Translations under genes and position numbers: made by a program
Notes under the pieces: generated by a model
The model's database searches: none
What the model was told of the DNA's origin: nothing
The model's input: the letters and a program-made list of their open reading frames with translations, nothing else
Source of the DNA: Solirubrobacterales bacterium
GTDB lineage: Bacteria; Actinomycetota; Thermoleophilia; Solirubrobacterales; Solirubrobacteraceae
DNA length: 64,000 bases
Direction of reading: 5' to 3'
NCBI GenBank assembly: GCA_019240115.1
Contig: JAFAYV010000009.1
Coordinates: 1-64,000 of the forward strand
Shown: piece after piece, positions 1,242-25,349 of the stretch
Layout of the letters: each line of letters starts with the position of its first letter
Numbering within the stretch: position 1 is the stretch's first letter

Positions 1242-2012
1242 TCACGAGCAGGACAGCGACACCGTGTCGGCGCGCAGGCCGACGCGGAGCGTCTCGAGCG
1301 AGATCACCTGATCGGTCGCGACGTTGCCGAGGTTGACGTCGGGACCGAGGCGGCCGATGAGGACCGCCTGCTGCTCGCGACGGGGCGCCTCGAAGATGAC
1401 CCGCTCACCCCCGACGGCGGCGAGGATCTCCGCGAGCAGCGGCTGCCGGATCGTTCCCGCCTCGTCGTAGAGGCCGACGCTGCCGCTCTCGCGCCCCTCG
1501 GCGACGACCCAGCTTGCGCCGGCGTCGAGGTCGGCGGTCATCTCGGCGATCCACTCCGAAGCGCTCGGGGTCACCGGTCGCTTGGAGCCGACCTCGGCGA
1601 GCACCGTGAAGTCGGCGCTCAGCTGCGCGACGAGCTCGAGCTTGCGCTGCGCCGGCATGCCGAGGGCACCGTTGGAGATCTCCACGCAGTCGACGCCGAG
1701 CTCGCGGACCCAGGCCACGAGCTGCCGCGTCCGGCCCTGCGCCTCGGCGATCTCGAGCAGGGTGCCGCCGAGGCACACGCGCACCCGGTGGCGGCGGCAG
1801 CAGGCGACCTTCTCAGCGATCGTCGGGCTGACGTAGGCGGTGCCCCAGCCGAACTTGACGATGTCGACGAACGGGCCCGCCTGTCCGAGCATCGATTCGA
1901 GCTCGCCGACGCCGAGCCCGCGATCGAGCGCGTGGGTGATGCCGACCCGACGGGGCTTGGCCGCGCGCGCCGGGAGATCGAGGAAGTCGGCGCCGGCGGG
2001 TCCGGCGGTCAC
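1242..2012 (-). CDS. comA: Phosphosulfolactate synthase (ComA/XcbB family)
   Basis: Catalyses addition of sulfite to phosphoenolpyruvate to give phosphosulfolactate, the first committed step of coenzyme M synthesis in PEP-dependent archaea and in Xanthobacter. The 256-residue length is normal for the family. Family motifs are visible in order: DFLDLP (9-14), THALDRGLG (26-34), DIVKFGWGTAYV (50-61), GGTLLEIA (82-89), CVEISNGALGMP (109-120), EGRESGSVGLYDEAG (172-186), and FEAPRREQQ followed by GPDVNLGN and ISLETLRVGLR (207-247). The start overlaps the stop of the upstream disulfide-reductase-like gene by 4 bp, so the two are probably translationally coupled. It is the last gene of the operon. 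A role in making CoM for the epoxide pathway next door is the natural reading; sulfolactate production alone is the alternative. Confidence 0.92.
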   Translation of the reverse strand: MTAGPAGADFLDLPARAAKPRRVGITHALDRGLGVGELESMLGQAGPFVDIVKFGWGTAYVSPTIAEKVACCRRHRVRVCLGGTLLEIAEAQGRTRQLVAWVRELGVDCVEISNGALGMPAQRKLELVAQLSADFTVLAEVGSKRPVTPSASEWIAEMTADLDAGASWVVAEGRESGSVGLYDEAGTIRQPLLAEILAAVGGERVIFEAPRREQQAVLIGRLGPDVNLGNVATDQVISLETLRVGLRADTVSLSCS

Positions 2013-4788: not shown

Positions 4789-5922
4789 TCAGGCCAGCGC
4801 CGCCGTCGGCAGCTGACCCTGGGAGACCTCTTCGCGGACGATCGCCACCCCGTCGACCAGCGCGCGCAGCTTGCCGAGGCAGATCATCCTCGGCAGGTTG
4901 ATCATCCCGCAGTCGGTGGTCAGCCCCAGGCGCTCGGCGGGGACGACCTTCAGGTACTCGCGCACCCGGCCGGCCACCTCCGCGGCGGTTTCGGTGATCG
5001 TCGACTTGACGTCGATGACGCCGGCGACGAACGGGCGGTCCCAGTGGTTGTCGAGCAACGGGCGCAGGTCGTCGGTGCCGGTGCGGCCGAGCTCGTAGTT
5101 GAGCACGTGCATGTGCGCGTCCGAGGCCTTGGGGAAGATCCCGTGGGCACGCTCGGGGGCGGGCGCGTCGGGGGGCCGGCGGTCCAGCAGCCAGGCGCCG
5201 TTCTCCTTGTCGCCGTCGTCGGGGAAGTAGCCGGGCGTTCCGGAGTAGTTGCCCCAGCAGGTGTGGGTCCAGAACTGCACGCCGGGCACGCCGTCGACGG
5301 CCAGGTTGTAGACCTCGACCTCCCAGTCCGACATCCCGTATGGCCAGACGAACTCGTCGAGCTGGATGATGTCGACCCCCTCCTCGGCGAGGCGCAGAAA
5401 GTCCTCGTGGTAGGCCGTGGCGATCTGCCGGGCGAGCGCGGCGGTGTCCTTGTAGTACTCGTCGTTGGCGGCCAGCGCCAGGACCTGGATGCCGGTGTAG
5501 GAGATCTTGATCGGCTTGCGCGTGGCCTTGCGCATCGCCCGCAGGTGCGCGAGGTGGAACGGCGCGATCCGCTGCACCTCGCCGACGATCGTCGGCGCGA
5601 ACAGCGTCGAGTAGATCGGCAGGCCGATCGGTGGCCCGGTCAGCCGGTTGCCGCTCATCCGCTTCCAGTAGTAATAGACGATCTCGCCGTAGGGGCTGTC
5701 GCCCCCGTACACCTTGCCGTCGGCGATGATGTCCAGCCCGGCTTCCTCCTGGTCTTTGACGATCGCGCCCACTGCGTCGTCGAAGGCCTCCTTGTGCGTG
5801 CCATCGTACGAGAACTCGCCGATCGGCATCTCCGAGAAGTCGCGACCGTCGTACCAGCGCGGGTTGGGATAGTTGCCCACCATCGTCGTGGGGAGCAGGA
5901 TCTCCTGGTCTGCGACGAGCAT
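4789..5922 (-). CDS. Epoxyalkane:coenzyme M transferase / MetE-family zinc alkyltransferase (paralog 2)
   Basis: Member of the cobalamin-independent methionine-synthase C-terminal family, in which zinc activates a thiol for alkyl transfer. From ATG 5922 the protein has 377 residues, the length I recall for Xanthobacter epoxyalkane:CoM transferase. This start has a strong GGAGGTG ribosome site 8 bp upstream, preferred over ATG 5988. Zinc ligands are visible as His220 and Cys222 (WTHTCWG), Glu277 (NYELGR) and Cys338 (TTDCGM). The N-terminus has the barrel motif LLPTTMVGNYPNPRW and later GLDIIADGK. It lies within the left-pointing operon holding CoA-transferase, acyl-CoA synthetase, aldehyde dehydrogenase and comA. 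It would add CoM thiolate to an epoxide, but a methyl- or other thiol-transfer role cannot be excluded. A second paralog is at 15577-16656. Confidence 0.8.
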   Translation of the reverse strand: MLVADQEILLPTTMVGNYPNPRWYDGRDFSEMPIGEFSYDGTHKEAFDDAVGAIVKDQEEAGLDIIADGKVYGGDSPYGEIVYYYWKRMSGNRLTGPPIGLPIYSTLFAPTIVGEVQRIAPFHLAHLRAMRKATRKPIKISYTGIQVLALAANDEYYKDTAALARQIATAYHEDFLRLAEEGVDIIQLDEFVWPYGMSDWEVEVYNLAVDGVPGVQFWTHTCWGNYSGTPGYFPDDGDKENGAWLLDRRPPDAPAPERAHGIFPKASDAHMHVLNYELGRTGTDDLRPLLDNHWDRPFVAGVIDVKSTITETAAEVAGRVREYLKVVPAERLGLTTDCGMINLPRMICLGKLRALVDGVAIVREEVSQGQLPTAALA

Positions 5923-5987
5923 GCCTTCACCTCCGGGTACGGCGGGATTGAATGCGGCGACCGTACGGCCACCGTCCGGCGCGCGCA

Positions 5988-8090
5988 TTAGCTCCGAGCG
6001 AGCAAATCCGTTTCGGCATTGCGCCGTGTCGCGCCGGCGCCGATGACCCGCAGATCGACGGCCACGGCGCCGTCGGGACGGGCGATGATCGGGTTGAGGT
6101 CGAGCTCTGAGATCTCGGGCACGGCGGCCAGCAGCCGCGACGCCGCGGCGACGGTCTCGGCGAGCGCGTCGAGGTCGACGCCCGCGGCGCCGCGAACCCC
6201 CTCGAGCACGGCGAAGCCGCGCAGCGACCGCAGCGCCGCCTGGGCCTGCGGCGGGGTCAGCGGCGCGAGGCGGAAGGCGACGTCGGCGAGCACCTCGACG
6301 AGGATGCCGCCGAGCCCGACGGCAACCACCGGCCCGAACTGGGGGTCGCGGAAGCCGCCGATGATCACCTCGGTGCCCGACACCATCGGCTGGACCATCA
6401 CCGCGGCGTCGTCGGCGAGGCCGAGCAGCTGCGCGGCGGCGTCGCGGACCGCGTCGGCGCCGGCGAGGTCGACGTGCACCCCGCCGACCTCGGACTTGTG
6501 GATCTGGGTCCGGCTGACGAGCTTGGCCACGACCGGGAAGCCAATCCGTTCGGCGGCCCGCGCCGCCGCCTCGGCGTCGCTCGCGATCGCCTGCGGCGCG
6601 ACGTCAATGCCGAACGCCCGCGCGAGCTCGGCCGCCGCCGCCCCGTCAAGCGGCCCCTCGCCGACCTCGGGCAGTCCCTCGGGCGCCGGGGCGGCCTGGG
6701 CCCGCTCGTCGCGCGAGTGGCGCACGCGACCGTAGCGATGCGCGAGCGAGGCGGCCCGGGCGGCCCGCACCGGCCACTCATAGCAGGGCACGCCCGCGGC
6801 CTGCAGCAGCTCCAGGTTGGGTCGCGCGTCGGCGGGCGCGACCCAGCAGATGTAGAGCGGCACCTCGATCCCGTCGGTGGCGAGCCGCCGCGAGACCTCG
6901 CGCATGCCCTCGGCGACCGCCCGGTCCTGGGCCGAGCGCGCGAGCAGGACGGTGACGACGATGTCGACCTCGCCCGACCGCGCGAGTCGATCGCTTGCGT
7001 ACGGATACAGCTCGGCGAACTTCGCCCACGCGGTCGTCACGTCGACGGGGTTGCGCGGGCTGCCGACCGCCGGCAGCCGGTCGGCGAGGTCGGCCTGCAG
7101 CTCGGAGGAGAGCTCGGGCACCGTCAGGCCGCCCTCGGTGAGCAGGTCGGTCAGCTCGACCCCGACGCCGCCGGAGTTCGTCACGACGCCGACCCGGCCG
7201 CCGCGGGGCACCGGCTGCCAGTCGAGCGCCCGGGCGAGGTCGAGCATCTCGAGGCCGCTGTCGGCGACGATCGCGCCTGACTGCTCGAGCGCGGCGCGCC
7301 AGAGCTCGGCGTTGCCGGCGAGCGCCGCGGTGTGCGACGCCGCCGCACGCAGGCCGGCGGCGGTGCGCCCCGTCTTGGTGACGATGACCGGCTTGCGGGG
7401 CGCGATCTCGCGGACCGCCTCGCAGAAGTCGCGGCCGTCGGGCATCGACTCGATGAGGAAGCACAGGACCTCGGACTCCGCGTCGCCGCCGAGGTACTCG
7501 AGCACCTCGGCGTCGCGGATATCGCAGCGGTTGCCCGCGGCGTAGAGCTTGGCGAAGTTCATCTGCTGCTCCTGGCCGAGCATGTAGATCGCCATCCCGT
7601 AGGCGCCCGATTGGGTCGCGAGCGTGATCGCGCCCGCGGTCGCGCCGGTCCCCAGCGCCATCGTGGCGTTGAGACCGAGGTGGGCGTTCTGGACCCCGAG
7701 ACAGTTGGGGCCGACGATCCGCACCCCGCCCGCGCGGCCGGCCTGCACCACCCGGCGCTGCAGCTCGGCCCCGGCGTCGCCGGTCTCGGCGAAGCCGCCG
7801 GAGACGACGACCAGCGCCCCGACGTCGGCCGCCGCGGCGTCGGCGACGACTTCGAGGATCGCCTTGGCGGGCACGATCGCGACCGCGAGGTCGATCCGAT
7901 CCGGCGCATCGGCGAGCCGGGCGTAGGCGCGATGGCCGAGGACCTCGTCGCGCGACGGGTTGATCGGTACGACCTCGCCGGTGAAGCCCTCGAGGTTGCG
8001 CATGAACGACGTGCCGACCTTGCCATCCTGGTCCGAGGCCCCGACGACCGCGACGCGCCGGGGCGCGAAGACCCGCTCCAGACCGCTCAC
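5988..8090 (-). CDS. ADP-forming acyl-CoA synthetase (acetate-CoA ligase family)
   Basis: Single-chain NDP-forming acyl-CoA ligase of 700 residues, related to succinyl-CoA synthetase. The N-terminal CoA-binding domain (1-130) has VFAPRRVAVVGASDQDGKVG, and the ligase domains follow. The phosphorylated histidine is His253 in SHTAALAGN. The C-terminal ATP-grasp domain (about 470-700) shows FPVVAKLVS, HKSEVGGVHVDL, MVSGTEVIIGGFRDPQFGPVV and ELDLNPI. Its start overlaps the stop of the CoA-transferase beta subunit by 4 bp. With the CoA-transferase next door the window has two ways to activate a carboxylate such as acetoacetate or acetate produced from epoxide breakdown; the true acid is unknown. 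Confidence 0.88.
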   Translation of the reverse strand: MSGLERVFAPRRVAVVGASDQDGKVGTSFMRNLEGFTGEVVPINPSRDEVLGHRAYARLADAPDRIDLAVAIVPAKAILEVVADAAAADVGALVVVSGGFAETGDAGAELQRRVVQAGRAGGVRIVGPNCLGVQNAHLGLNATMALGTGATAGAITLATQSGAYGMAIYMLGQEQQMNFAKLYAAGNRCDIRDAEVLEYLGGDAESEVLCFLIESMPDGRDFCEAVREIAPRKPVIVTKTGRTAAGLRAAASHTAALAGNAELWRAALEQSGAIVADSGLEMLDLARALDWQPVPRGGRVGVVTNSGGVGVELTDLLTEGGLTVPELSSELQADLADRLPAVGSPRNPVDVTTAWAKFAELYPYASDRLARSGEVDIVVTVLLARSAQDRAVAEGMREVSRRLATDGIEVPLYICWVAPADARPNLELLQAAGVPCYEWPVRAARAASLAHRYGRVRHSRDERAQAAPAPEGLPEVGEGPLDGAAAAELARAFGIDVAPQAIASDAEAAARAAERIGFPVVAKLVSRTQIHKSEVGGVHVDLAGADAVRDAAAQLLGLADDAAVMVQPMVSGTEVIIGGFRDPQFGPVVAVGLGGILVEVLADVAFRLAPLTPPQAQAALRSLRGFAVLEGVRGAAGVDLDALAETVAAASRLLAAVPEISELDLNPIIARPDGAVAVDLRVIGAGATRRNAETDLLARS

Positions 8091-14169: not shown

Positions 14170-14220
14170 GCCGCGCGCCCACGCGGGAACCGCCGCGCGC
14201 CCACGCGGGAACCGTCGCGC
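14170..14220. repeat. 22-bp direct repeat between two left-pointing genes
   Basis: Two perfect 22-bp copies (14170-14191 and 14192-14213, core CGCGCGCCCACGCGGGAACC) plus the first bases of a third. They fill the entire gap between the E2 stop and the dioxygenase start. Confidence 0.85.
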
Positions 14221-15566
14221 TAGCCGAGGAGGAGGCGCGTCGGGCGTTGCAGGCCGTCGCGGATCGCGGCCAGGAACTGCGCGGCGTCCGCGCCGTAGAG
14301 GATGCGATGGTCACAGGAGAGCGTCATCTCCATTCGCGGGCGGATCGCCGGCGCGCCCTCGTGGGCGACGACGCGGTCGCCGACGGCTCCGACGGCGAGG
14401 ATCGCCGCCTGCGGCGCGTTGACGATCGCCACGAAGCGATCGATGCCGAACATCCCGAGGTTCGAGACGGTGAACGTCGCGCCGTCGAGCTCGGCCGGGG
14501 TCAGCCTGCCGTCGCGCGCCCGCCGCGCGAGCTCGCGCGTGCGCCGTGCGATCTCCCCGAGCGAGAGCCGGTCGGCGTCGCGGACCGCCGGCACGAGCAG
14601 GCTCTCCTGCGCGGCGACCGCGAGCCCGACGCTGACGGGGTCGTGCAGCTGCCAGGCGCCGTCGCGATAGCTGCCGTTGGCGCGCGGCGTCCTGCGCAGG
14701 GCGAGCGCTGAGGCCTTGACCACGAAGTCGGTGACGCTCGGGATCGGCTGCTCGTCGGCTTCGGCGCGCATCCGCGCCCGGAGCTCGAGCAGCGCGGCCA
14801 TGTCGACCTCGACGGTCAGCGAGAAGTCGGGCACGACCTCGTGGGACTCCGACATCCGCCGCGCGATGACCTGCTGGACGCGCGTCAGCTTCTGCACCTC
14901 GCCGCCGTCACCGACGCGGTCGGCGGGGGGCTCCGGGGCGGACGGCTCACGGGCGGCGGACGCCTCGGGGGCGGCGGACGGCTCGGGGGCGGCGGCCTGG
15001 GCGGCCTGCACGTCGCGCTTGACGATCCGCCCGCGCGGGCCGGTGCCCCGCAGCGTGCCGAGGTCGACGCCCGCCTGCGCGGCGAGCCGACGGGCGACGG
15101 GAGAGGCGATGATGCGCTCGCGCGTGCCCGCTCCGTTGGAACCGGAGGCCGTCGCCGGCTCGGAAGTCGACTTCGGATCCGGATCGGCCGAGCCGCCCTC
15201 GGTCGTGGCGCCCTCGGCGACCTGCACCGGCTTCTCGCCGCCGCCTCCGTCGCTTGCCGAGCCTCGGTCGCTTGCCGAGCCTCGGTCGCTTGCCGAGCCT
15301 CCGTCGCTCGCCGAGCCCGCGTCGGAGCCCGAGGCGTCGCCGTGCAGCGTCGCCAGTTGGGCTCCGACATCGGCCGTCTCTCCCTCCTGCACCTCGATGC
15401 GCAGCACGCCGGCGGCCGGTGCCTCGTAGACCATCGTGGCCTTGTCGGTCTCGATCTCGACCAGGGGCGCGCCCGACTCCACGGACTCGCCGTCGGAGAC
15501 CAGCCAGGAGACGATCACCCCGGACTCCATCGAGTCCGAGAGGCGCGGCATGTTGACCGCCGGCAT
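14220..15566 (-). CDS. 2-oxoacid dehydrogenase E2 (dihydrolipoyl acyltransferase)
   Basis: Acyltransferase core of a pyruvate/acetoin/2-oxoacid dehydrogenase complex, 448 residues. One N-terminal lipoyl domain (1-80) has the lipoyl lysine in ETDKATM. A flexible linker (about 80-145) contains an 18-bp-period repeat encoding SASDRG units. The E3/E1-binding domain follows (ASPVARRLAAQAGVDLGTLRGTGPRGRI, about 150-180). The catalytic domain ends with the active-site histidine in SCDHRILYGADAAQ. In most E2 proteins the motif is HxxxDG; here the Asp is Tyr, although the His remains. Start ATG 15566 has a GGAGGG site. It is the last gene of the operon E1alpha, E1beta, CoM transferase, E2; no E3 gene is present nearby. 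Confidence 0.92.
   Translation of the reverse strand: MPAVNMPRLSDSMESGVIVSWLVSDGESVESGAPLVEIETDKATMVYEAPAAGVLRIEVQEGETADVGAQLATLHGDASGSDAGSASDGGSASDRGSASDRGSASDGGGGEKPVQVAEGATTEGGSADPDPKSTSEPATASGSNGAGTRERIIASPVARRLAAQAGVDLGTLRGTGPRGRIVKRDVQAAQAAAPEPSAAPEASAAREPSAPEPPADRVGDGGEVQKLTRVQQVIARRMSESHEVVPDFSLTVEVDMAALLELRARMRAEADEQPIPSVTDFVVKASALALRRTPRANGSYRDGAWQLHDPVSVGLAVAAQESLLVPAVRDADRLSLGEIARRTRELARRARDGRLTPAELDGATFTVSNLGMFGIDRFVAIVNAPQAAILAVGAVGDRVVAHEGAPAIRPRMEMTLSCDHRILYGADAAQFLAAIRDGLQRPTRLLLG
15250..15321 (-). repeat. In-frame 18-bp repeat in the E2 linker
   Basis: Four tandem 18-bp units (starts at 15250, 15268, 15286, 15304) encode Ser/Ala/Asp/Gly hexapeptides between the lipoyl and E3-binding domains. 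Such a linker is normally flexible, so length variation should be tolerated. Confidence 0.85.
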
Positions 15567-15576
15567 CGGCCCTCCG

Positions 15577-16656
15577 TCAGGCGGCGCCGACCGGCTCGGG
15601 CGCGGAGCTGCCGCTGATCTCCTTGACCACTTGGTCGCGGCCGTCGCACATGGCCTTCAGCTTCGCGTAGGCCATCGTGCGGCTGAAGTAGCCGAGGCCG
15701 CAGTCGGTCATCACGATCATCCGCTCGGCCGGGACGACGTCGATCGCCTTGTGGATGCGATCGGCGACGACCTCGGGGCTCTCGACCTGGGTGTCCTTGG
15801 AGTCGATCACGCCGATCCCCAGCACCTTGTCGGTCGGGAACTCGCGAAACGCGCCTATCTCGGCGAAGTCGCGGTGGGTGAACTCGAGGTGGATGACGTC
15901 GGCGGAGCTCTGGTGAAACAGCGGCATCATGTCGACCGCCTTGTTCTCCCAGACGTCGATCTGACCGTCGACGCTGCCGTAGCAGACGTGCCAGATCTTC
16001 GTCATCGTGATGCCCTCGAACATCGCGTTCTGGACGTCGATCTGCCACGTGTCCTGGGTGTAGGGCGGCAGCACGTCGATCAGCTGCACGGCCTCCAGGC
16101 CCATGTCCTGCAGGTAACGCAGCTCCTGGTTGAGCGCCTTGGCGATGTCGGTCGCCATCGCGACCTGGTCGCCGCCGTAGTGCTCGTCGTGCACGATCAC
16201 GCTCTGCTGGGCGGGGCCGAGCAGGCTGAACTTGAACGGCTTCTCGGTCGCGTTCTGCAGCGCGTAGACGACGCCCTCGAACATCGGGCGGACCCAGTGG
16301 ATCGGGCCCGAGACGACCGGCTTGTAGAACGGCCGGTACTTCTGACCGTCGCCGGGAGGACCGTAGAGCTCGAAGCCGCCGAGGTTCTCGGGCACGAAGT
16401 GGAAGATCGGCTCGAGCTGGAACCCCGGCGCCTCCCACTCGTAGTACTGGTGGCCGTCGGTGAGGATGTCCAGGCCGGCCTTCTCCTGCTCGTAGCAGCA
16501 GAGCTTGATCGCGTCCTCGTAGGTGACGCGGAGATCGTGGCTGCGGTAGACGGGCTCGTTCAGCGTCCCGAACACGCGGCCGCGGAGCCACTGGGGTCTG
16601 GGCAGCGCCCCGACGGTCGACGTGGGCAGCAGAACTTCTTCACCGCGTATCTGCAT
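15577..16656 (-). CDS. xecA: Epoxyalkane:coenzyme M transferase (EaCoMT) candidate
   Basis: Zinc-dependent thiol alkyltransferase of the MetE C-terminal family, 359 residues. The N-terminus LLPTSTVGALPRPQWLRGR resembles EaCoMT, as do YEDAIKLC, GLDILTDGHQYYEW and AVQLIDVLPPYTQ. Zinc ligands are visible: His223 and Cys225 in WHVCYG, Glu258 in HLEFTHRD and Cys319 in TDCGLGY. It would attack an epoxide with CoM thiolate to give a 2-hydroxyalkyl-CoM thioether, the first step after alkene epoxidation. ATG 16656 has an AAGGAGGAG site 6 bp upstream. It sits between E1beta (21-bp gap) and E2 (10-bp gap) of a 2-oxoacid dehydrogenase operon, an unusual arrangement. A methionine-synthase-like methyltransferase is the main alternative; the 2-KPCC and HPCDH genes nearby argue against that. 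Confidence 0.83.
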   Translation of the reverse strand: MQIRGEEVLLPTSTVGALPRPQWLRGRVFGTLNEPVYRSHDLRVTYEDAIKLCCYEQEKAGLDILTDGHQYYEWEAPGFQLEPIFHFVPENLGGFELYGPPGDGQKYRPFYKPVVSGPIHWVRPMFEGVVYALQNATEKPFKFSLLGPAQQSVIVHDEHYGGDQVAMATDIAKALNQELRYLQDMGLEAVQLIDVLPPYTQDTWQIDVQNAMFEGITMTKIWHVCYGSVDGQIDVWENKAVDMMPLFHQSSADVIHLEFTHRDFAEIGAFREFPTDKVLGIGVIDSKDTQVESPEVVADRIHKAIDVVPAERMIVMTDCGLGYFSRTMAYAKLKAMCDGRDQVVKEISGSSAPEPVGAA

Positions 16657-16677
16657 GTGTCTCTCCTCCTTCTCGGG

Positions 16678-17649
16678 TTAGCTCATCCGTCGCACGGCGG
16701 CGATGACGCGTTGCGCATTGGGGTTGACCTCCTCCTCGAGCACGCCGGCCGCGGGCAGCGGCACCGACGCCCCGCAGACGCGCAGGACCGGGGCGTCCAG
16801 GTCGTCGAATCCCTCGTCGGAGACGATCGCCGCCAGCGACGCGCTCCACCCGAGCTGCCCGGGACCCTCCTCGACGATGACCAGCCGGTTGGTCGTGGCC
16901 ACCGACCGCAGCACCGCGGCCACGTCGAGCGGCACGAGCGTGCGCAGGTCGATGACCTCGGCGCTGATTCCCTCGTCGGCGAGCTGGTCGGCCGCCGCCT
17001 CACAGATCCCGACCGTGAAGGCGAGCCCGACGAGCGTCACGTCGGAGCCCTCGCGCAGCGTGTGGGACTCGCCGAGCGCCACCACGTGGTCGCCGTCGGG
17101 GACCTCGCCGGTCCTGCCGTACAACCCCTTGTGCTCGAACACGAGCACCGGATCCTCCTCGCGGATCGCGCCCGCCAGCAGGCCCTTGAAGTCCGACGGC
17201 GTGGACGGGCAGGCGATCTTCAGCCCGGGCACGCACATCGCCCAGCTCTCGGCGGACTGGCTGTGCTGGGCGCCGAAGCCCAGCCCGCCGCCGCCGTTGG
17301 AGCCGCGCACGACGAGCGGCAGGCGGACCTGGCCGCCGGTCATGTAGCGCGTCTTGGCGATCTCGTTGGCGACCAGGTCCCAGCAGGTGGCGTAGAAGTC
17401 GGCGAACATGATCTCGGCCACCGGCCGCAGGCCTCCCATCGCGGCTCCCATCGCCGAGCCGACGATCGCCTGCTCGGAGATCGGCGTGTCCCACACCCGC
17501 TCGGCGCCGAAGCGGTCGACCAGGCCCGGCGTGGTCTTGAACACGCCGCCGGGCGCGACGTCCTCGCCGAGCAGCACCACCCGCTCGTCGCGAGCCATCT
17601 CCTGCTCGAGCGCGGCGCGGATCGCGTCCCGGCCGGTCAGCTCCGCCAC
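16678..17649 (-). CDS. 2-oxoacid dehydrogenase E1 beta subunit
   Basis: Thiamine-diphosphate-dependent E1 beta subunit, 323 residues from GTG 17649, which overlaps the 3' end of E1alpha by 13 bp. Recognisable stretches are RDAIRAALEQEMARDERVVLLGEDV (N-terminus, with the TPP-contacting Glu), GVFKTTPGLVDRFG, DTPISEQAIVGSAMGAAMGG, RPVAEIMFADF, GGGLGFGAQHSQSAE with the active-site His, and a transketolase C-terminal domain (VIDLRTLVPLDVAAVL). Forms the alpha2-beta2 decarboxylase with 17637-18659. Pyruvate, acetoin or another 2-oxo compound could be the substrate; the sequence seen here does not decide. Confidence 0.92.
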   Translation of the reverse strand: MAELTGRDAIRAALEQEMARDERVVLLGEDVAPGGVFKTTPGLVDRFGAERVWDTPISEQAIVGSAMGAAMGGLRPVAEIMFADFYATCWDLVANEIAKTRYMTGGQVRLPLVVRGSNGGGGLGFGAQHSQSAESWAMCVPGLKIACPSTPSDFKGLLAGAIREEDPVLVFEHKGLYGRTGEVPDGDHVVALGESHTLREGSDVTLVGLAFTVGICEAAADQLADEGISAEVIDLRTLVPLDVAAVLRSVATTNRLVIVEEGPGQLGWSASLAAIVSDEGFDDLDAPVLRVCGASVPLPAAGVLEEEVNPNAQRVIAAVRRMS

Positions 17650-18659
17650 GCGCTGCCCCCGTCGGCCCACACGTCGGTCATCGCCGTCTCGCCCTGGGGG
17701 GACGGCGCGGCCAGCGCACGCTCGGCGACCTCGTCGACGAGCTCTGAGACCTCGCGCTCGACGCCGTCGAGCTCCTCGGCGGGCACATCGCGCTCGGAGA
17801 GCACCGTGCGATAGCGGCCGACCGGCTCCTTGCGCGCCCACTCCTGCACCTCGGCCTCGGGCCGGTAGGCGGCCGGGTCGGCGAGCGAGTGGCCGCGCAG
17901 GCGGTAGGTCATCGCCTCGACGATCGACGGTCCGTCGCCCTTGCGGGCGCGCTGCACGCGCTCGGCGATGACGTCGCGCACCGCCTCGACGTCGTTGCCG
18001 TCGACGACGACCCGGTCCAGGCCGTAGGCGGACGCGCGGTCCGCGGCCGGGTGGCGCACCGGGGTGACCGCGGTGATCGGGGTGTACTCCATGTACAGGT
18101 TGTTCTCGCAGCAGAAGATCAGCGGCAGCTGCCACACCGCCGCGAGGTTGACCGCCTCGTGGAACGCGCCGATGTTCGTCGCGCCGTCGCCGAAGAAGCA
18201 GACGGTGACGTTGCCCTCGCCCTTGAGGCGTTGGGCCCAGGCCAGGCCGCAGGCGATCGGCAGGTGCGCGCCGACGATCGCGTAGGAGCCGAAGTAGCCG
18301 TGCTCGACGCTCGTGATGTGCATCGAGCCGCCCTTGGCGTCGCAAACGCCGCCCTCGCGGCCCAGGAGCTCGCGCAGGACCGCCTCGGGATCGGCGCCGC
18401 GGGCGAGCGCGTGCGCGTGGCCGCGGTAGGTGCCGATCGTCGCGTCGCCCTCGCGCAGGCAGGCGGCGACGCCGACCGAGATCGCCTCGTGGCCGTCGGA
18501 GAGATGGCCGGGGCCGTGGACGCCGCCGTCGGTCCACAGCTGGCGGGTCTTCTCGGCCATCCGGCGCGCCAGGAGCATCGAGCGATACAGCTCGAGATCC
18601 GCGGCGTCGGGGGGTGGCGAGAGTGTCCCGGCTCGGTCTGGAGAGGAGTCGTCGGCCAT
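17637..18659 (-). CDS. 2-oxoacid/acetoin dehydrogenase E1 alpha subunit
   Basis: E1 alpha subunit, 340 residues. The TPP/Mg motif GDG...NN is visible as FFGDGATNIGAFHEAVNL...CENN (about 165-198). GGVCDAKGGSMHI, HLSDGHEAISVG and YRLRGHSLADPAAYR (phosphorylation-loop region) are typical of acetoin and pyruvate dehydrogenases. It is the first gene of a left-pointing operon with E1beta, an EaCoMT-type gene and E2, and it diverges from the R-hydroxypropyl-CoM dehydrogenase gene across 113 bp. The operon lacks an E3. Linkage with CoM-pathway genes suggests that it oxidises a product of that pathway, or that an acetoin-type system became co-regulated with it; both are inference. Confidence 0.92.
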   Translation of the reverse strand: MADDSSPDRAGTLSPPPDAADLELYRSMLLARRMAEKTRQLWTDGGVHGPGHLSDGHEAISVGVAACLREGDATIGTYRGHAHALARGADPEAVLRELLGREGGVCDAKGGSMHITSVEHGYFGSYAIVGAHLPIACGLAWAQRLKGEGNVTVCFFGDGATNIGAFHEAVNLAAVWQLPLIFCCENNLYMEYTPITAVTPVRHPAADRASAYGLDRVVVDGNDVEAVRDVIAERVQRARKGDGPSIVEAMTYRLRGHSLADPAAYRPEAEVQEWARKEPVGRYRTVLSERDVPAEELDGVEREVSELVDEVAERALAAPSPQGETAMTDVWADGGSAWRS

Positions 18660-21554: not shown

Positions 21555-22457
21555 GTGCGCGATCTCGTGGCAAACGACATGGCGCGTCCCTACCGGGCGC
21601 TGAGCGTGCAGGAGACCGACGTCCCGCTCGCCGAGCCCGAGCTCAGCGAGCTGATGATCGACCGTCTCGTCTACCGGCGCACCGAGTTCATCGCGCTGGC
21701 CAACGGCGACGAGCGCGCGCTCATCCAGGTCGACCACGCCGAGGACGAGCTGTTTGAGCCGGTCACCGACATGCGCCTCGTGGCCGGTCCCGATGAGGTG
21801 CAGTTCGTCCACGCGCCGACGGTCAACACCGCCAACGCGACGCACATGGCGCGGGCGGCGCTCGAGCATCCGCGGCCCGCGCGGGTCTACCTCGTGGAGG
21901 GCCTCTTCCAGCACATCAACTTCATCGTCGAGCCCGCCCCGGTGCCCATCGTCGTGCTCGAGGTCGTCCCGCCCGAGCCGCCGAAGCTGCTCGAGATGGC
22001 CCGGCGGGTGATTGACTTCGACGAGGACCTGCCGCCGATCGAGCTGCGCGCCGAGCGGGTCGACATGGAGGCGATCGCGCGCTCGGCGCCCGCCCCGCGC
22101 TTCCTGTTCCCGTGCCGCTGCAGCGGCCTTGCGCTGAGAACCGAGGTCGACTTCCTCGACGCCGGCCCGCCGACGCGCGGGGACTGGACACTCGTCGGCT
22201 GCGAGCGCTCGCGCCAGATCCACGCCGCGCTGTACGAGGACGAGCTGGCGGCGCTGCGCACGATGTGCCCGCGCGAGCACGCCGACGCTCACGCGGACGG
22301 CCCGCCGCTGCTGCTCAAGTGCTGCCTGCGCGAGCGCGAGATCGAGCTCGAGGGCGAGCGGCGCGCGATCGTCCCCTGGGGCGCCTCGCTCGACGAGGTC
22401 CGCGAGGCGCTGCACGCGCTCGCCGGGGCGGGGGTGCAGGCCCCCGCGGCCGGATGA
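21555..22457 (+). CDS. Unknown protein with six C-terminal cysteines, next to CoM-type lyases
   Basis: I do not recognise this family with confidence. Starts at GTG 21555 or, more likely, ATG 21579 (292 residues). No signal peptide or membrane segment. The N-terminal two thirds are soluble alpha/beta in character (ALIQVDHAEDELFEPVTD, HAPTVNTANATHMARAAL, PVPIVVLEVVPPEPPKLLEM). The last third holds six cysteines: 179 and 181 (PCRC), 208 (VGCERS), 230 (MCPRE), 248 and 249 (KCCLRE), which could bind zinc or an Fe-S cluster. It is co-oriented with and 31 bp upstream of the XcbC-like lyase gene, divergent from the PucR gene. Position makes it a candidate for a CoM-synthesis step (decarboxylation or thiolation) not otherwise covered here; that is inference only. 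Confidence 0.8.
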   Translation: MRDLVANDMARPYRALSVQETDVPLAEPELSELMIDRLVYRRTEFIALANGDERALIQVDHAEDELFEPVTDMRLVAGPDEVQFVHAPTVNTANATHMARAALEHPRPARVYLVEGLFQHINFIVEPAPVPIVVLEVVPPEPPKLLEMARRVIDFDEDLPPIELRAERVDMEAIARSAPAPRFLFPCRCSGLALRTEVDFLDAGPPTRGDWTLVGCERSRQIHAALYEDELAALRTMCPREHADAHADGPPLLLKCCLREREIELEGERRAIVPWGASLDEVREALHALAGAGVQAPAAG

Positions 22458-22488: not shown

Positions 22489-23838
22489 GTGAGCTCGCAC
22501 ATCATCGACTCCGAGCAGTACGGCCACCTGTGGTCGACCGAGGCCACGCGCGAGCTGTTCTCCGACCGCGGGCGCCTGCGCGGGTGGCTGGAGATCCTCG
22601 TCGCCCTCGCCGAGGCCCAGGCCGAGTGCGGACTCGTTCCCGGCGAGGCGGCCGAGGCGATCGCGCGGACGCTGCCCGACCTCGAGCTCGATCCCGCCGC
22701 TGTCGGGCGGGCGACCCAGGAGGCCGGTCACTCGACGCTCGGGCTCATTCGCTGCCTGCAGGCCGAGCTTCCGCTTCAGGCGCGCGAATGGATCTACTAC
22801 GGCGCCACCGTCCAGGATCTGACCGACACCTGGCTGGGGATCGTCATGCGCCGGATGTGCGGGATGCTCGGCGAGGGGGTGAACGAGATCGAGGCGGCCG
22901 CCGTGGCGCTCGCCCGGCGCCACCGCGACACGGTTACCCTCGGCCGCACCCACGCTCAGCCGGGGCTGCCGATCACCTTCGGGTTCAAGGCGGCGGTGTG
23001 GGTCGCCGAGCTGCGCCGCCACTCCGAGCGCGTCACCGAGGCGACGCCGCGGCTGGCCGTCGGACAGCTCGCCGGGGCGGTCGGCTCCGGCGCGTTCTTC
23101 GGCGAGCGCACGATCGAGCTTCAGGAGCGCTTCCTGGGTCGCCTCGGCCTGCGGGTTCCCGAGATCGCGTGGCTGACGGCGCGCGACCGGGTCACCGAGC
23201 TGATGGTCCTGTGCGCGATGGTGACGGGAACGCTGGCCAAGGTCGGCAACGAGATCAAGCAGCTGCAGCGGGCCGAGATCGGCGAGGTCCGCGAACCGAC
23301 CCGCGACGGCCTCGTCGGCAGCATCACCATGCCCCACAAGCGCAACCCCGAGCTCTCCGAGCACCTCGGGACGCTCGCCCGGGTCGTGCGCGGCGGGGCG
23401 TCGCTGGCGCTCGAGGGCGGCGCCCACGAGCACGAGCGCGACGGCACGGCGTGGAAGACCGAGTGGGCGTTCGTCCCCGAGGGCTGCTCGGCGACGGCGG
23501 TCGCGCTCGGGCTGGCGGCCGAGCTGCTCTCGGGCCTCGAGGTCGACGCCGAGCGGATGCGCGCCAACCTCGAGGCCCAGCGGGGCTACGTGCTCTCCGA
23601 GCCGGTCATGGCGGTCATCGCCGACAAGGTCGGCAAGCACGAGGCCCACCGGCTCGTCTACGAGGCGAGCATCGCCGCGGTTCGGCGCGGCGACACGTTC
23701 GCCGAGGCGATCCGCGGCTCCGACGCCTCCGCCCACCTCGACGAGGACGAGCTCGCCGCGGCGCTGGATCCCGAGCGGACCGCCGCGCACGCGGCGAGCT
23801 TCGTCGATCGCGTCCTGGGCGTCTCGGTGACCGGCTGA
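22489..23838 (+). CDS. Aspartase/fumarase-superfamily lyase, XcbC-like (sulfoacrylate-forming) candidate
   Basis: 449 residues from GTG 22489 with a GGAGGGG site. The three superfamily regions are present: GATVQDLTDT (105-114), GRTHAQPGLPITFGFK (152-167) and GSITMPHKRNP (277-287), which carries the catalytic-loop Ser278 and Lys284/Asn286. Overall it resembles adenylosuccinate lyase and 3-carboxymuconate cycloisomerase. In Xanthobacter, XcbC1 of this superfamily eliminates phosphate from phosphosulfolactate to give sulfoacrylate, and XcbD1 is a second member. Here two such genes are fused head to tail (TGATG overlap) in a window that also has comA and 2-KPCC. That context is why I prefer a CoM role over purine or protocatechuate metabolism; no pur or pca genes are nearby. 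Confidence 0.8.
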   Translation: MSSHIIDSEQYGHLWSTEATRELFSDRGRLRGWLEILVALAEAQAECGLVPGEAAEAIARTLPDLELDPAAVGRATQEAGHSTLGLIRCLQAELPLQAREWIYYGATVQDLTDTWLGIVMRRMCGMLGEGVNEIEAAAVALARRHRDTVTLGRTHAQPGLPITFGFKAAVWVAELRRHSERVTEATPRLAVGQLAGAVGSGAFFGERTIELQERFLGRLGLRVPEIAWLTARDRVTELMVLCAMVTGTLAKVGNEIKQLQRAEIGEVREPTRDGLVGSITMPHKRNPELSEHLGTLARVVRGGASLALEGGAHEHERDGTAWKTEWAFVPEGCSATAVALGLAAELLSGLEVDAERMRANLEAQRGYVLSEPVMAVIADKVGKHEAHRLVYEASIAAVRRGDTFAEAIRGSDASAHLDEDELAAALDPERTAAHAASFVDRVLGVSVTG

Positions 23839-25349
23839 TGGAGCCGGTCCGCACCGCCCCGCCCGCCGGGTACCTCGGCGCCGAGGGTCGGATCACCTCG
23901 GGACCCGCGCCGGCGATGGAGATCGCCGGCTACGGCTACGAGATCGCCGACGCCGAGTTCCTGCACGAGGCGCTGGGCATCGCGCACCTCGCCCACGTGA
24001 CGATGCTCGCCGAGCAGGGCGTGATCCCCGCGGCCGACCGCGGCCCGCTCGTGCGCGGCGTGCTGCGGATGATCGAGATCCCGGTCGACGAGTTCCCCTA
24101 CGAGCGTCAGCTCGGCGACGCCTATAACTCCCAGGAGAAGTGGCTCGAGGCCGAGATCGGCGCCGCCGCGGGCTGGCTGAGCGCGGGTCGCACCCGCCGC
24201 GAGGCGGGACGGCTCGCCTTCCGGCTCGTGCTCCGCGACGCGCTCGTCGGCCTCGGGCGGGCGACGGCCGCGTTCGCGGACTCGCTGACCGCCGTCGCCC
24301 AGCGTCACGCGCAGACCCTGGCGCCGGACTACACCTACCTGCAGATCGCCCAGGCGACGACGTTCGGCCACTACCTGCTGTCGTTCTCGTATCCGGCGCT
24401 GCGCGACTGCGACCGCATCCGGGCGGCCCTGTCCTGGGTCGATCGCAGTCCCGGCGGGGTCGGCGGCGTCGCCGGGTCGCGCCTCCCGCTCGACCGCCGG
24501 CGGATCGCCGAGCTGCTCGCCTTCGCCGGGGTGATCGAGCATGCGCGCGACGCGATGTGGCAGACCGACGGCCTCGTCGACACCTGCGGCGCGGCCGTCA
24601 ACGCGACGACGAACTGCGCCCGGCTCGCCCAGGACCTCGAGATCTACGCGAGCTCCGAGTTCGGCATCGTCCAACTGGCGAGCGATGTCTCGCGCGCGAG
24701 CGCGCTCATGCCCCAGAAGCGCAACCCCTACTCGCTCCCGGTCATCCGCGGCGCCGCGGGGCTCGTGCTCGGGCGGCTGACCGGCGTCGCCGCGATGCAG
24801 CAGACCCCGTCGGCGCGGACCGACAACCTGCTCTACGCGTATCGCGAGGTCCTCGGCGCGGTCCGCACCGCGGGCGAGGTCGTCGACCTCGCCGCCACCG
24901 TCGTGCGGGGGCTGACGATCTCGCAGGCGCGCCTGCGCGAGCTCGCCCACACCGGGTTCGCCCAGGCCACCGACGTCACCGAGGCCCTCTGCCGCAACGG
25001 CGCGATGGACTATCGCTCCGCGTATCGCGTGGTCGCCCGGGCGGCGGCGATCGCGGTCGACGAGGGCTTGGCCGATCTCACCCACGATGCCCTGCGCCAG
25101 GCCTCGGAGGAGGTTCTCGGCGAGCCGTGCGCGCTGCTCGCGGGCGAGCTCGACGAGCTGCTGGATCCCCGGGCGGCGGTCGACAGCCGGACGATCGAGG
25201 GGGGCGCGGCGGCGGGACCGCTGCGCGACATGGTGCGCGCCTGCGGCGAGCGCTGCGCCGAGGCGACGGCGGGGTTCGCGGCCGACGCCCGGCGCTACGA
25301 GGCGATGCCCGCAGCGCTGCGGGCGGCGGCCGCCGCGGTCTGCGGGTGA
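23838..25349 (+). CDS. Aspartase/fumarase-superfamily lyase, argininosuccinate-lyase-like (XcbD-like) candidate
   Basis: 503 residues, starting inside the stop of the preceding lyase (TGATG). Resembles argininosuccinate lyase: GDAYNSQEKWLEAEIGAAAGWL near the N-terminus, PDYTYLQIAQATTFGHYLLSF, VAGSRLPLDRRRIAELLAF and the signature loop ASALMPQKRNPYSLPV, in which the catalytic-loop serine, Lys and Asn remain. No argG or other arginine gene is near, so ordinary arginine synthesis is unlikely. Bacterial CoM synthesis in Xanthobacter uses a pair of superfamily members, XcbC1 and XcbD1; this gene would be the second. Which residue changes adapt it to sulfonated substrates cannot be told from the sequence alone. 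The stop codon seeds a 17-bp tandem repeat. Confidence 0.78.
   Translation: MEPVRTAPPAGYLGAEGRITSGPAPAMEIAGYGYEIADAEFLHEALGIAHLAHVTMLAEQGVIPAADRGPLVRGVLRMIEIPVDEFPYERQLGDAYNSQEKWLEAEIGAAAGWLSAGRTRREAGRLAFRLVLRDALVGLGRATAAFADSLTAVAQRHAQTLAPDYTYLQIAQATTFGHYLLSFSYPALRDCDRIRAALSWVDRSPGGVGGVAGSRLPLDRRRIAELLAFAGVIEHARDAMWQTDGLVDTCGAAVNATTNCARLAQDLEIYASSEFGIVQLASDVSRASALMPQKRNPYSLPVIRGAAGLVLGRLTGVAAMQQTPSARTDNLLYAYREVLGAVRTAGEVVDLAATVVRGLTISQARLRELAHTGFAQATDVTEALCRNGAMDYRSAYRVVARAAAIAVDEGLADLTHDALRQASEEVLGEPCALLAGELDELLDPRAAVDSRTIEGGAAAGPLRDMVRACGERCAEATAGFAADARRYEAMPAALRAAAAAVCG

What the first reader, a model, noticed from the sequence alone, without database searches (positions are those of the whole stretch)
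21555..22457. Unrecognised six-cysteine protein upstream of the CoM lyase pair
A 292-300-residue protein with CxC, CC and two further cysteines in the last third, co-directional with the two lyases. It is the only uncharacterised enzyme-sized gene inside the putative CoM-synthesis operon, so it is a natural candidate for the decarboxylation, thiolation or sulfur-delivery step.
Basis: inference. Interest (0 to 1): 0.75.

Follow-up and report, generated by a model that had tools for sequence, protein, structure and literature searches.

The report
XcbA, core bacterial coenzyme M gene
The unnamed protein is XcbA, a known but poorly understood member of the bacterial coenzyme M gene set; it turns up essentially only where that cofactor is made and carries five cysteines that never change, so it is probably a metal-binding enzyme for one of the last steps.

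Summary
It is Pfam DUF7714 and NCBIfam 'XcbA family protein' (318 bits, cut-off 150). Its counterpart in Xanthobacter autotrophicus Py2 is Xaut_5051, directly upstream of xcbB1-C1-D1-E1. The 308-aa 'xcbF1' reported in mycobacterial vinyl-chloride clusters fits the same family.

Both refutation tests were passed. In 396 Actinomycetota genomes the 10 with XcbA are exactly the 10 with XcbD above 500 bits. In 301 genomes of a methanotroph order all 22 with XcbC have XcbA. Five of the six cysteines are invariant in 86/86 sequences; the second Cys of 'CxC' is not (4/86).

XcbE, the PLP enzyme, is missing from this genome and at least four others with XcbA, XcbC and XcbD, so XcbA is retained more tightly than XcbE.

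Best mechanism, inferred: a five-cysteine (Fe-S or Zn) enzyme acting after sulfoacrylate, most likely in decarboxylation; reduction is the main rival.

Side finding: 13 xcb loci sit with oxamate carbamoyltransferase genes and never with epoxide genes, hinting at a second use of bacterial CoM.

The parts
21555..22457 (+). xcbA (DUF7714 / NCBIfam CoM_XcbA_fam), 300 aa from GTG21555 or 296 aa from GTG21567; invariant Cys187, 216, 238, 256, 257 (numbered from GTG21555)
   Evidence: orthologue Xaut_5051
22489..23838 (+). xcbD (NCBIfam '3-sulfopropionylcysteine synthase XcbD')
   Evidence: 627 bits, cut-off 600; 47-55% identity to Py2 and Nocardioides XcbD
23838..25349 (+). xcbC (phosphosulfolactate phosphate-eliminating lyase); start overlaps the xcbD stop
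   Evidence: NF052535 441.6 bits, below the strict cut-off of 575 but far above ordinary argH (at most 226 bits); next to XcbA/XcbD as in relatives
1242..2009 (-). comA / xcbB (phosphosulfolactate synthase), first pathway step; a second copy lies at G000:C94:41488-42195
   Evidence: PF02679 E 1.6e-79
4789..5988 (-). epoxyalkane:CoM transferase-like gene (CoM user)
   Evidence: 47% identity to Py2 EaCoMT, 324 bits; PF01717
10648..12291 (+). 2-ketopropyl-CoM oxidoreductase/carboxylase-like flavoprotein (CoM user)
   Evidence: 51% identity to Py2 KPCC, 510 bits; PF07992
19519..21573 (-). divergent GAF/PucR-type regulator, sharing the intergenic region with xcbA; its listed TTG start overlaps xcbA, so the true start is probably further in
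   Evidence: PF13556, PF13185, PF17853

Best explanation
The gene encodes XcbA, a core protein of the bacterial CoM pathway. Known steps (established knowledge): ComA/XcbB joins sulfite to PEP; XcbC eliminates phosphate to give sulfoacrylate; XcbD is named by NCBI as a cysteine-adduct (3-sulfopropionylcysteine) synthase; XcbE is a PLP enzyme of the D-cysteine desulfhydrase family. XcbA most likely acts after sulfoacrylate as a metalloenzyme whose five invariant cysteines (C-x28/29-C-x20-C-x13-21-CC in most members) hold an Fe-S or Zn site. The likeliest reaction is loss of the C3 unit's carboxylate, the one step that addition/elimination lyases and a PLP C-S lyase would not normally perform. 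My estimates: identity as XcbA 0.97; dedicated role in CoM synthesis 0.9; metal site 0.7; decarboxylation 0.4.
For: Shown: orthology to Xaut_5051, next to xcbB1-E1. Fixed order comA-xcbA-xcbD-xcbE-xcbC in Nocardioides, Mycolicibacterium and Methylocystis, with CoM genes beside it in nearly all of 80 further loci. Co-occurrence in genome samples: Actinomycetota 10/10 with XcbD above 500 bits, Fisher p 4e-20; Methylococcales XcbC 22/22 with XcbA, p 2e-31. All eight XcbA genomes tested, six of which showed no XcbC beside XcbA or only at a distance, have a clear XcbC, 344-764 bits against at most 226 for argH. Five Cys invariant in 86/86, no CxxC in any. XcbE is absent from at least five whole genomes that keep XcbA, XcbD and XcbC: best 20-47 bits against 266-335 in true carriers. 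Inferred: carbon bookkeeping, and the idea that a housekeeping beta-lyase could replace XcbE but not a decarboxylase.
Against: No fold, cofactor or activity was shown here. PMC11507031 treats a sulfoacetaldehyde dehydrogenase as the functional analogue of Py2 XcbA, which points to a redox step. From memory, the abstract of Wu et al. 2022 (not held) lists decarboxylation, thiolation and reduction as the last three steps without naming XcbA, so another enzyme may do the decarboxylation. NCBIfam gives XcbA no activity. M. acetivorans has a DUF7714 protein although its published CoM route uses ComDE and MMP16, so the family may have another role in archaea.
Confidence: 0.6

Rival explanations
1. 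XcbA is the terminal reductase or thiol-releasing protein: its cysteine/metal centre reduces a thiolated or persulfide intermediate to CoM.
For: PMC11507031 equates XcbA functionally with a sulfoacetaldehyde dehydrogenase. Five invariant Cys, including a CC pair, could be a redox site. Reduction is a listed step in the published pathway abstract (from memory). Losing XcbE but not XcbA fits if XcbA makes the final product.
Against: No P-loop, no conserved GxGxxG/A (20/86 contain one anywhere) and no CxxC (0/86), so no recognisable NAD(P)H-binding or thioredoxin-type motif. No Pfam hit to any dehydrogenase.
Confidence: 0.25
2. XcbA is a sulfur carrier or delivery protein (persulfide on the CC pair) for the thiolation step.
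For: Invariant CC pair and three more invariant cysteines. Strict linkage to the pathway. Could explain CoM synthesis in genomes without XcbE.
Against: No resemblance to any Pfam model other than DUF7714 at meaningful E-values, so none to rhodanese, TusA or IscU. XcbD is already named as the enzyme that attaches sulfur from cysteine, which would leave no need for a carrier.
Confidence: 0.15
3. XcbA is a non-catalytic partner: scaffold, channel for unstable sulfoacrylate/thiol intermediates, or a metal-dependent regulator of the lyases.
For: No recognisable catalytic domain; nearly always beside the CoM genes.
Against: 26 residues are invariant in 81 rows, spread over the sequence, including polar ones (H120, D202, R218, S219); this looks catalytic or ligand-binding rather than scaffold-like.
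Confidence: 0.1

Closest known systems
XcbA1 (Xaut_5051), Xanthobacter autotrophicus Py2 pXAUT01
   Same: Same family (NF052538: 470 bits for Py2, 318 for the window protein), about 36-39% identity, next to the CoM lyases, all five invariant Cys present
   Different: The window operon is xcbA-xcbD-xcbC with comA 20 kb away and no xcbE in the genome; Py2 has xcbA-B-C-D-E together
'xcbF1' of mycobacterial vinyl-chloride clusters (PMC8727900)
   Same: The 308-aa unknown protein matches the length of the XcbA homologue on Mycolicibacterium chubuense NBB4 pMYCCH.02 (308 aa, directly after comA), which is 44% identical to the window protein
   Different: In the text found that paper treats it as a new gene and does not link it to Py2 XcbA
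Solirubrobacter soli DSM 22325 XcbA (L085)
   Same: Nearest relative found (54-56% identity); same xcbA-xcbD-xcbC order without xcbE in the operon
   Different: Flanked by AllG/AllH and Nit1C-type genes instead of epoxide genes
MMP16/ComF (COG1900), the archaeal CoM synthase
   Same: Also a metalloprotein that acts late in CoM synthesis (PMC12068725)
   Different: No credible Pfam match from any of 81 XcbA members to anything but DUF7714; works like it at most

Membership tests
XcbA family (NCBIfam NF052538 / Pfam PF24830) | Score above the curated cut-off over the full length | tested here: met
   317.8 bits (cut-off 150), residues 6-291, profile 6-290 of 293; 274 bits (cut-off 25)
XcbA family (NCBIfam NF052538 / Pfam PF24830) | Five invariant cysteines | tested here: met
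   86/86 sequences, window included
XcbA family (NCBIfam NF052538 / Pfam PF24830) | Linkage to ComA, XcbC and XcbD | tested here: met
   window xcbA-D-C with comA at 1242-2009; survey
Complete bacterial CoM pathway (xcbA-E) | XcbE PLP enzyme present | tested here: not met
   best NF052537 match in the genome 20 bits; protein queries gave only 30-37% identity at E 1e-5 to 3e-6. Genome 95.6% complete, so loss in assembly is unlikely but not excluded
NAD(P)H-dependent reductase or thioredoxin-like redox protein | Conserved Rossmann GxGxxG or CxxC motif | tested here: not met
   GxGxxG/A present in only 20/86, CxxC in 0/86
Metalloenzyme (Fe-S or Zn) | Cysteines converge on one metal site in the fold | not testable with these tools
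Decarboxylase of CoM synthesis | CO2 release from a sulfopropionate intermediate | not testable with these tools
   needs enzymology; the pathway paper is not held

The most novel reading that the evidence does not exclude
XcbA is a founding member of a new enzyme fold: a five-cysteine metalloenzyme that decarboxylates the cysteine-sulfopropionate adduct (or releases CoM from it). In XcbE-less bacteria such as this one it completes CoM synthesis with a housekeeping lyase. The pathway also serves a second, non-epoxide metabolism tied to oxamate carbamoyltransferase and Nit1C genes.
Probability: 0.25. Interest if true: 0.7.

Novelty: new member of a known kind. Interest (0 to 1): 0.42.

Why it matters
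XcbA is as tightly tied to bacterial CoM synthesis as the characterised lyases, yet the family databases give it no activity and it has no solved structure. Five fixed cysteines make a direct test easy: purify, look for a metal, mutate, and feed intermediates. The genomes that lack XcbE but keep XcbA show that the published five-gene set is not universal. The loci beside oxamate carbamoyltransferase and nitrilase genes suggest that bacteria use CoM for something other than alkene epoxides.

Tried and rejected
Single-sequence scan of genome contigs found nothing; an alignment query found 148 candidates. PDB searches with sequence and profile: nothing credible. Weak Pfam hits such as UbiD_C (2 of 81 members, E 0.1) were rejected as chance. 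Wu et al. 2022 and Partovi et al. 2018 are not held. The M. acetivorans DUF7714 protein could not be fetched (it appears only as a control). A viral-contig scan found no relatives. An XcbE search in the own genome gave only weak matches, rejected as orthologues. Considered and rejected: that the XcbE-less operon in this window makes something other than CoM, because epoxyalkane:CoM transferase-like and KPCC-like genes lie in the same window.

Full report
Observation. The ORF 21555-22457 (+) is present as described and is followed by two lyase genes on the same strand. It hits Pfam DUF7714 (PF24830, E 1.3e-81) and NCBIfam NF052538 'XcbA family protein' (317.8 bits, cut-off 150). The next gene is XcbD (627 bits, cut-off 600). 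The one after is XcbC-like: 442 bits against a strict cut-off of 575, although clear XcbC genes in other XcbA genomes also score 344-545, far above ordinary argininosuccinate lyases at 226 or less. ComA lies at 1242-2009 on the minus strand and a second copy on contig C94. The window also holds an EaCoMT-like gene, a KPCC-like gene, an SDR, CoA-transferase and acyl-CoA ligase genes, i.e. an epoxide/alkene cluster.

Identity. On plasmids, XcbA relatives occur in Nocardioides JS614, Mycolicibacterium chubuense NBB4 (two plasmids), Methylocystis iwaonis and Xanthobacter autotrophicus Py2. In Py2 the protein is Xaut_5051, directly before phosphosulfolactate synthase, two fumarate lyases and the PLP enzyme, i.e. 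xcbB1-C1-D1-E1. Elsewhere the order is comA-xcbA-xcbD-xcbE-xcbC. The 308-aa homologue after comA on pMYCCH.02 matches in length the 'xcbF1' that PMC8727900 described as a new unknown CoM gene, and M. rhodesiae JS60 has the same gene (L018). So xcbF1 and xcbA very probably name one family.

Conservation. An alignment-based scan found 148 candidate loci, of which 80 were kept. In 86 XcbA sequences five cysteines are invariant (187, 216, 238, 256 and 257 when numbered from GTG21555). Spacing is tight in most members: 28 or 29, 20, 13-21, 0. An Asn before ATG21579 is conserved in all 85 rows that reach it, so translation starts at GTG21555 or GTG21567. No CxxC and no P-loop occur, and GxGxxG/A is not conserved.

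Association test. In 396 Actinomycetota genomes 10 have DUF7714. Those 10 are exactly the genomes with XcbD above 500 bits; the next XcbD-like scores are 491 and 420 in genomes without XcbA. In 301 genomes of one methanotroph order, XcbC occurs in 22 and XcbA in 24, and all 22 XcbC genomes have XcbA. Of the two extras, one has XcbA close to a contig start and one is broken into pieces with stops. Fisher p is 4e-20 and 2e-31; relatedness of genomes makes these optimistic. Eight more XcbA genomes, chosen mostly because no XcbC was seen beside XcbA, all have a clear XcbC in the genome.

XcbE is dispensable, XcbA is not. The window genome and G512, G551, G483 and G571 (reached a second time as G758) keep XcbA, XcbD and XcbC but have no XcbE: best 20-47 bits against 266-335 in true carriers. 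G629, an 81%-complete genome, also shows no XcbE. S. soli has no xcbE in the operon and only an ambiguous relative elsewhere. XcbE-less rows fall in at least two branches of the XcbA tree. The genomes are 94-97% complete where completeness is told, G629 apart, so a missing contig cannot be excluded for any one of them, but is unlikely for all.

Mechanism. Shown: identity, linkage, five-Cys conservation, XcbE loss. From established knowledge: ComA and XcbC chemistry. From database naming only: XcbD as a 3-sulfopropionylcysteine synthase and XcbE as a CoM enzyme. If XcbD attaches cysteine to sulfoacrylate, two operations remain: loss of the carboxylate and C-S cleavage. A PLP enzyme such as XcbE suits C-S cleavage, and a housekeeping beta-lyase could stand in for it. 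The decarboxylation then falls to XcbA. This is inference (0.4). PMC11507031 instead pairs XcbA functionally with a sulfoacetaldehyde dehydrogenase, which favours reduction (0.25).

An archaeal echo. Methanosarcina acetivorans, one of the control genomes, has a DUF7714 match above the Pfam cut-off and below the XcbA cut-off. Its published CoM route uses cysteate synthase, ComDE and MMP16 (PMC12068725). The locus could not be fetched; whether it is related to CoM is open.

Second context. Among the loci examined, 51 have EaCoMT or KPCC genes nearby. Another 13 (12 distinct, since L084 and L127 are the same locus) have AllG and/or FdrA-like oxamate carbamoyltransferase genes, in several cases with an amino-acid-kinase (carbamate-kinase-like) gene, and 6 of these have Nit1C markers as well. 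No locus has both. These loci come from Actinomycetota, Myxococcota and Alphaproteobacteria. Two literature searches found no paper joining these gene sets, but the library is partial.

Verdict. The claim of an unrecognised gene is not: it is XcbA, a named family of still unsettled activity. Novelty is low for the gene itself; the strict retention, the five-Cys core, the XcbE-less variant and the second context are what is worth following.

Noticed in passing
L007, L031, L078, L084=L127, L085, L088, L125, L126, L128-L131: xcb operons beside AllG/AllH/FdrA-like oxamate carbamoyltransferase genes, six of them also with Nit1C markers (nitrilase, radical SAM, AIR-synthase-like, GNAT), and never beside epoxide genes (0 of 64 loci with either context have both). 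Suggests a second use of CoM or of a pathway intermediate.
   Followed up: partly
G000 (whole genome), G483, G512, G551, G571/G758, G629; L126, L127, L129, L130: CoM operons without any recognisable XcbE in the genome, while XcbA, XcbD and XcbC stay intact (G629: XcbA and XcbD seen at a contig edge).
   Followed up: partly
Methanosarcina acetivorans control genome: A DUF7714 homologue above the Pfam cut-off in a methanogen that makes CoM by another route; it could not be retrieved.
   Followed up: no
window 15577-16656 (-), with 14220-18659 (-): A second methionine-synthase-like protein, 30% identical to Py2 EaCoMT, among 2-oxoacid dehydrogenase E1alpha/E1beta/E2 genes; possibly a second CoM- or thiol-transferase pathway.
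   Followed up: no
G614:C30:11300-12622 (L134): An XcbD-like lyase (491 bits, below cut-off) with no XcbA or XcbC nearby; probably a different lyase close to XcbD.
   Followed up: partly
G000:C94:41488-42195 (L133): A second ComA-family gene (45-48% identity) with no other xcb gene in the 11 kb read around it.
   Followed up: partly
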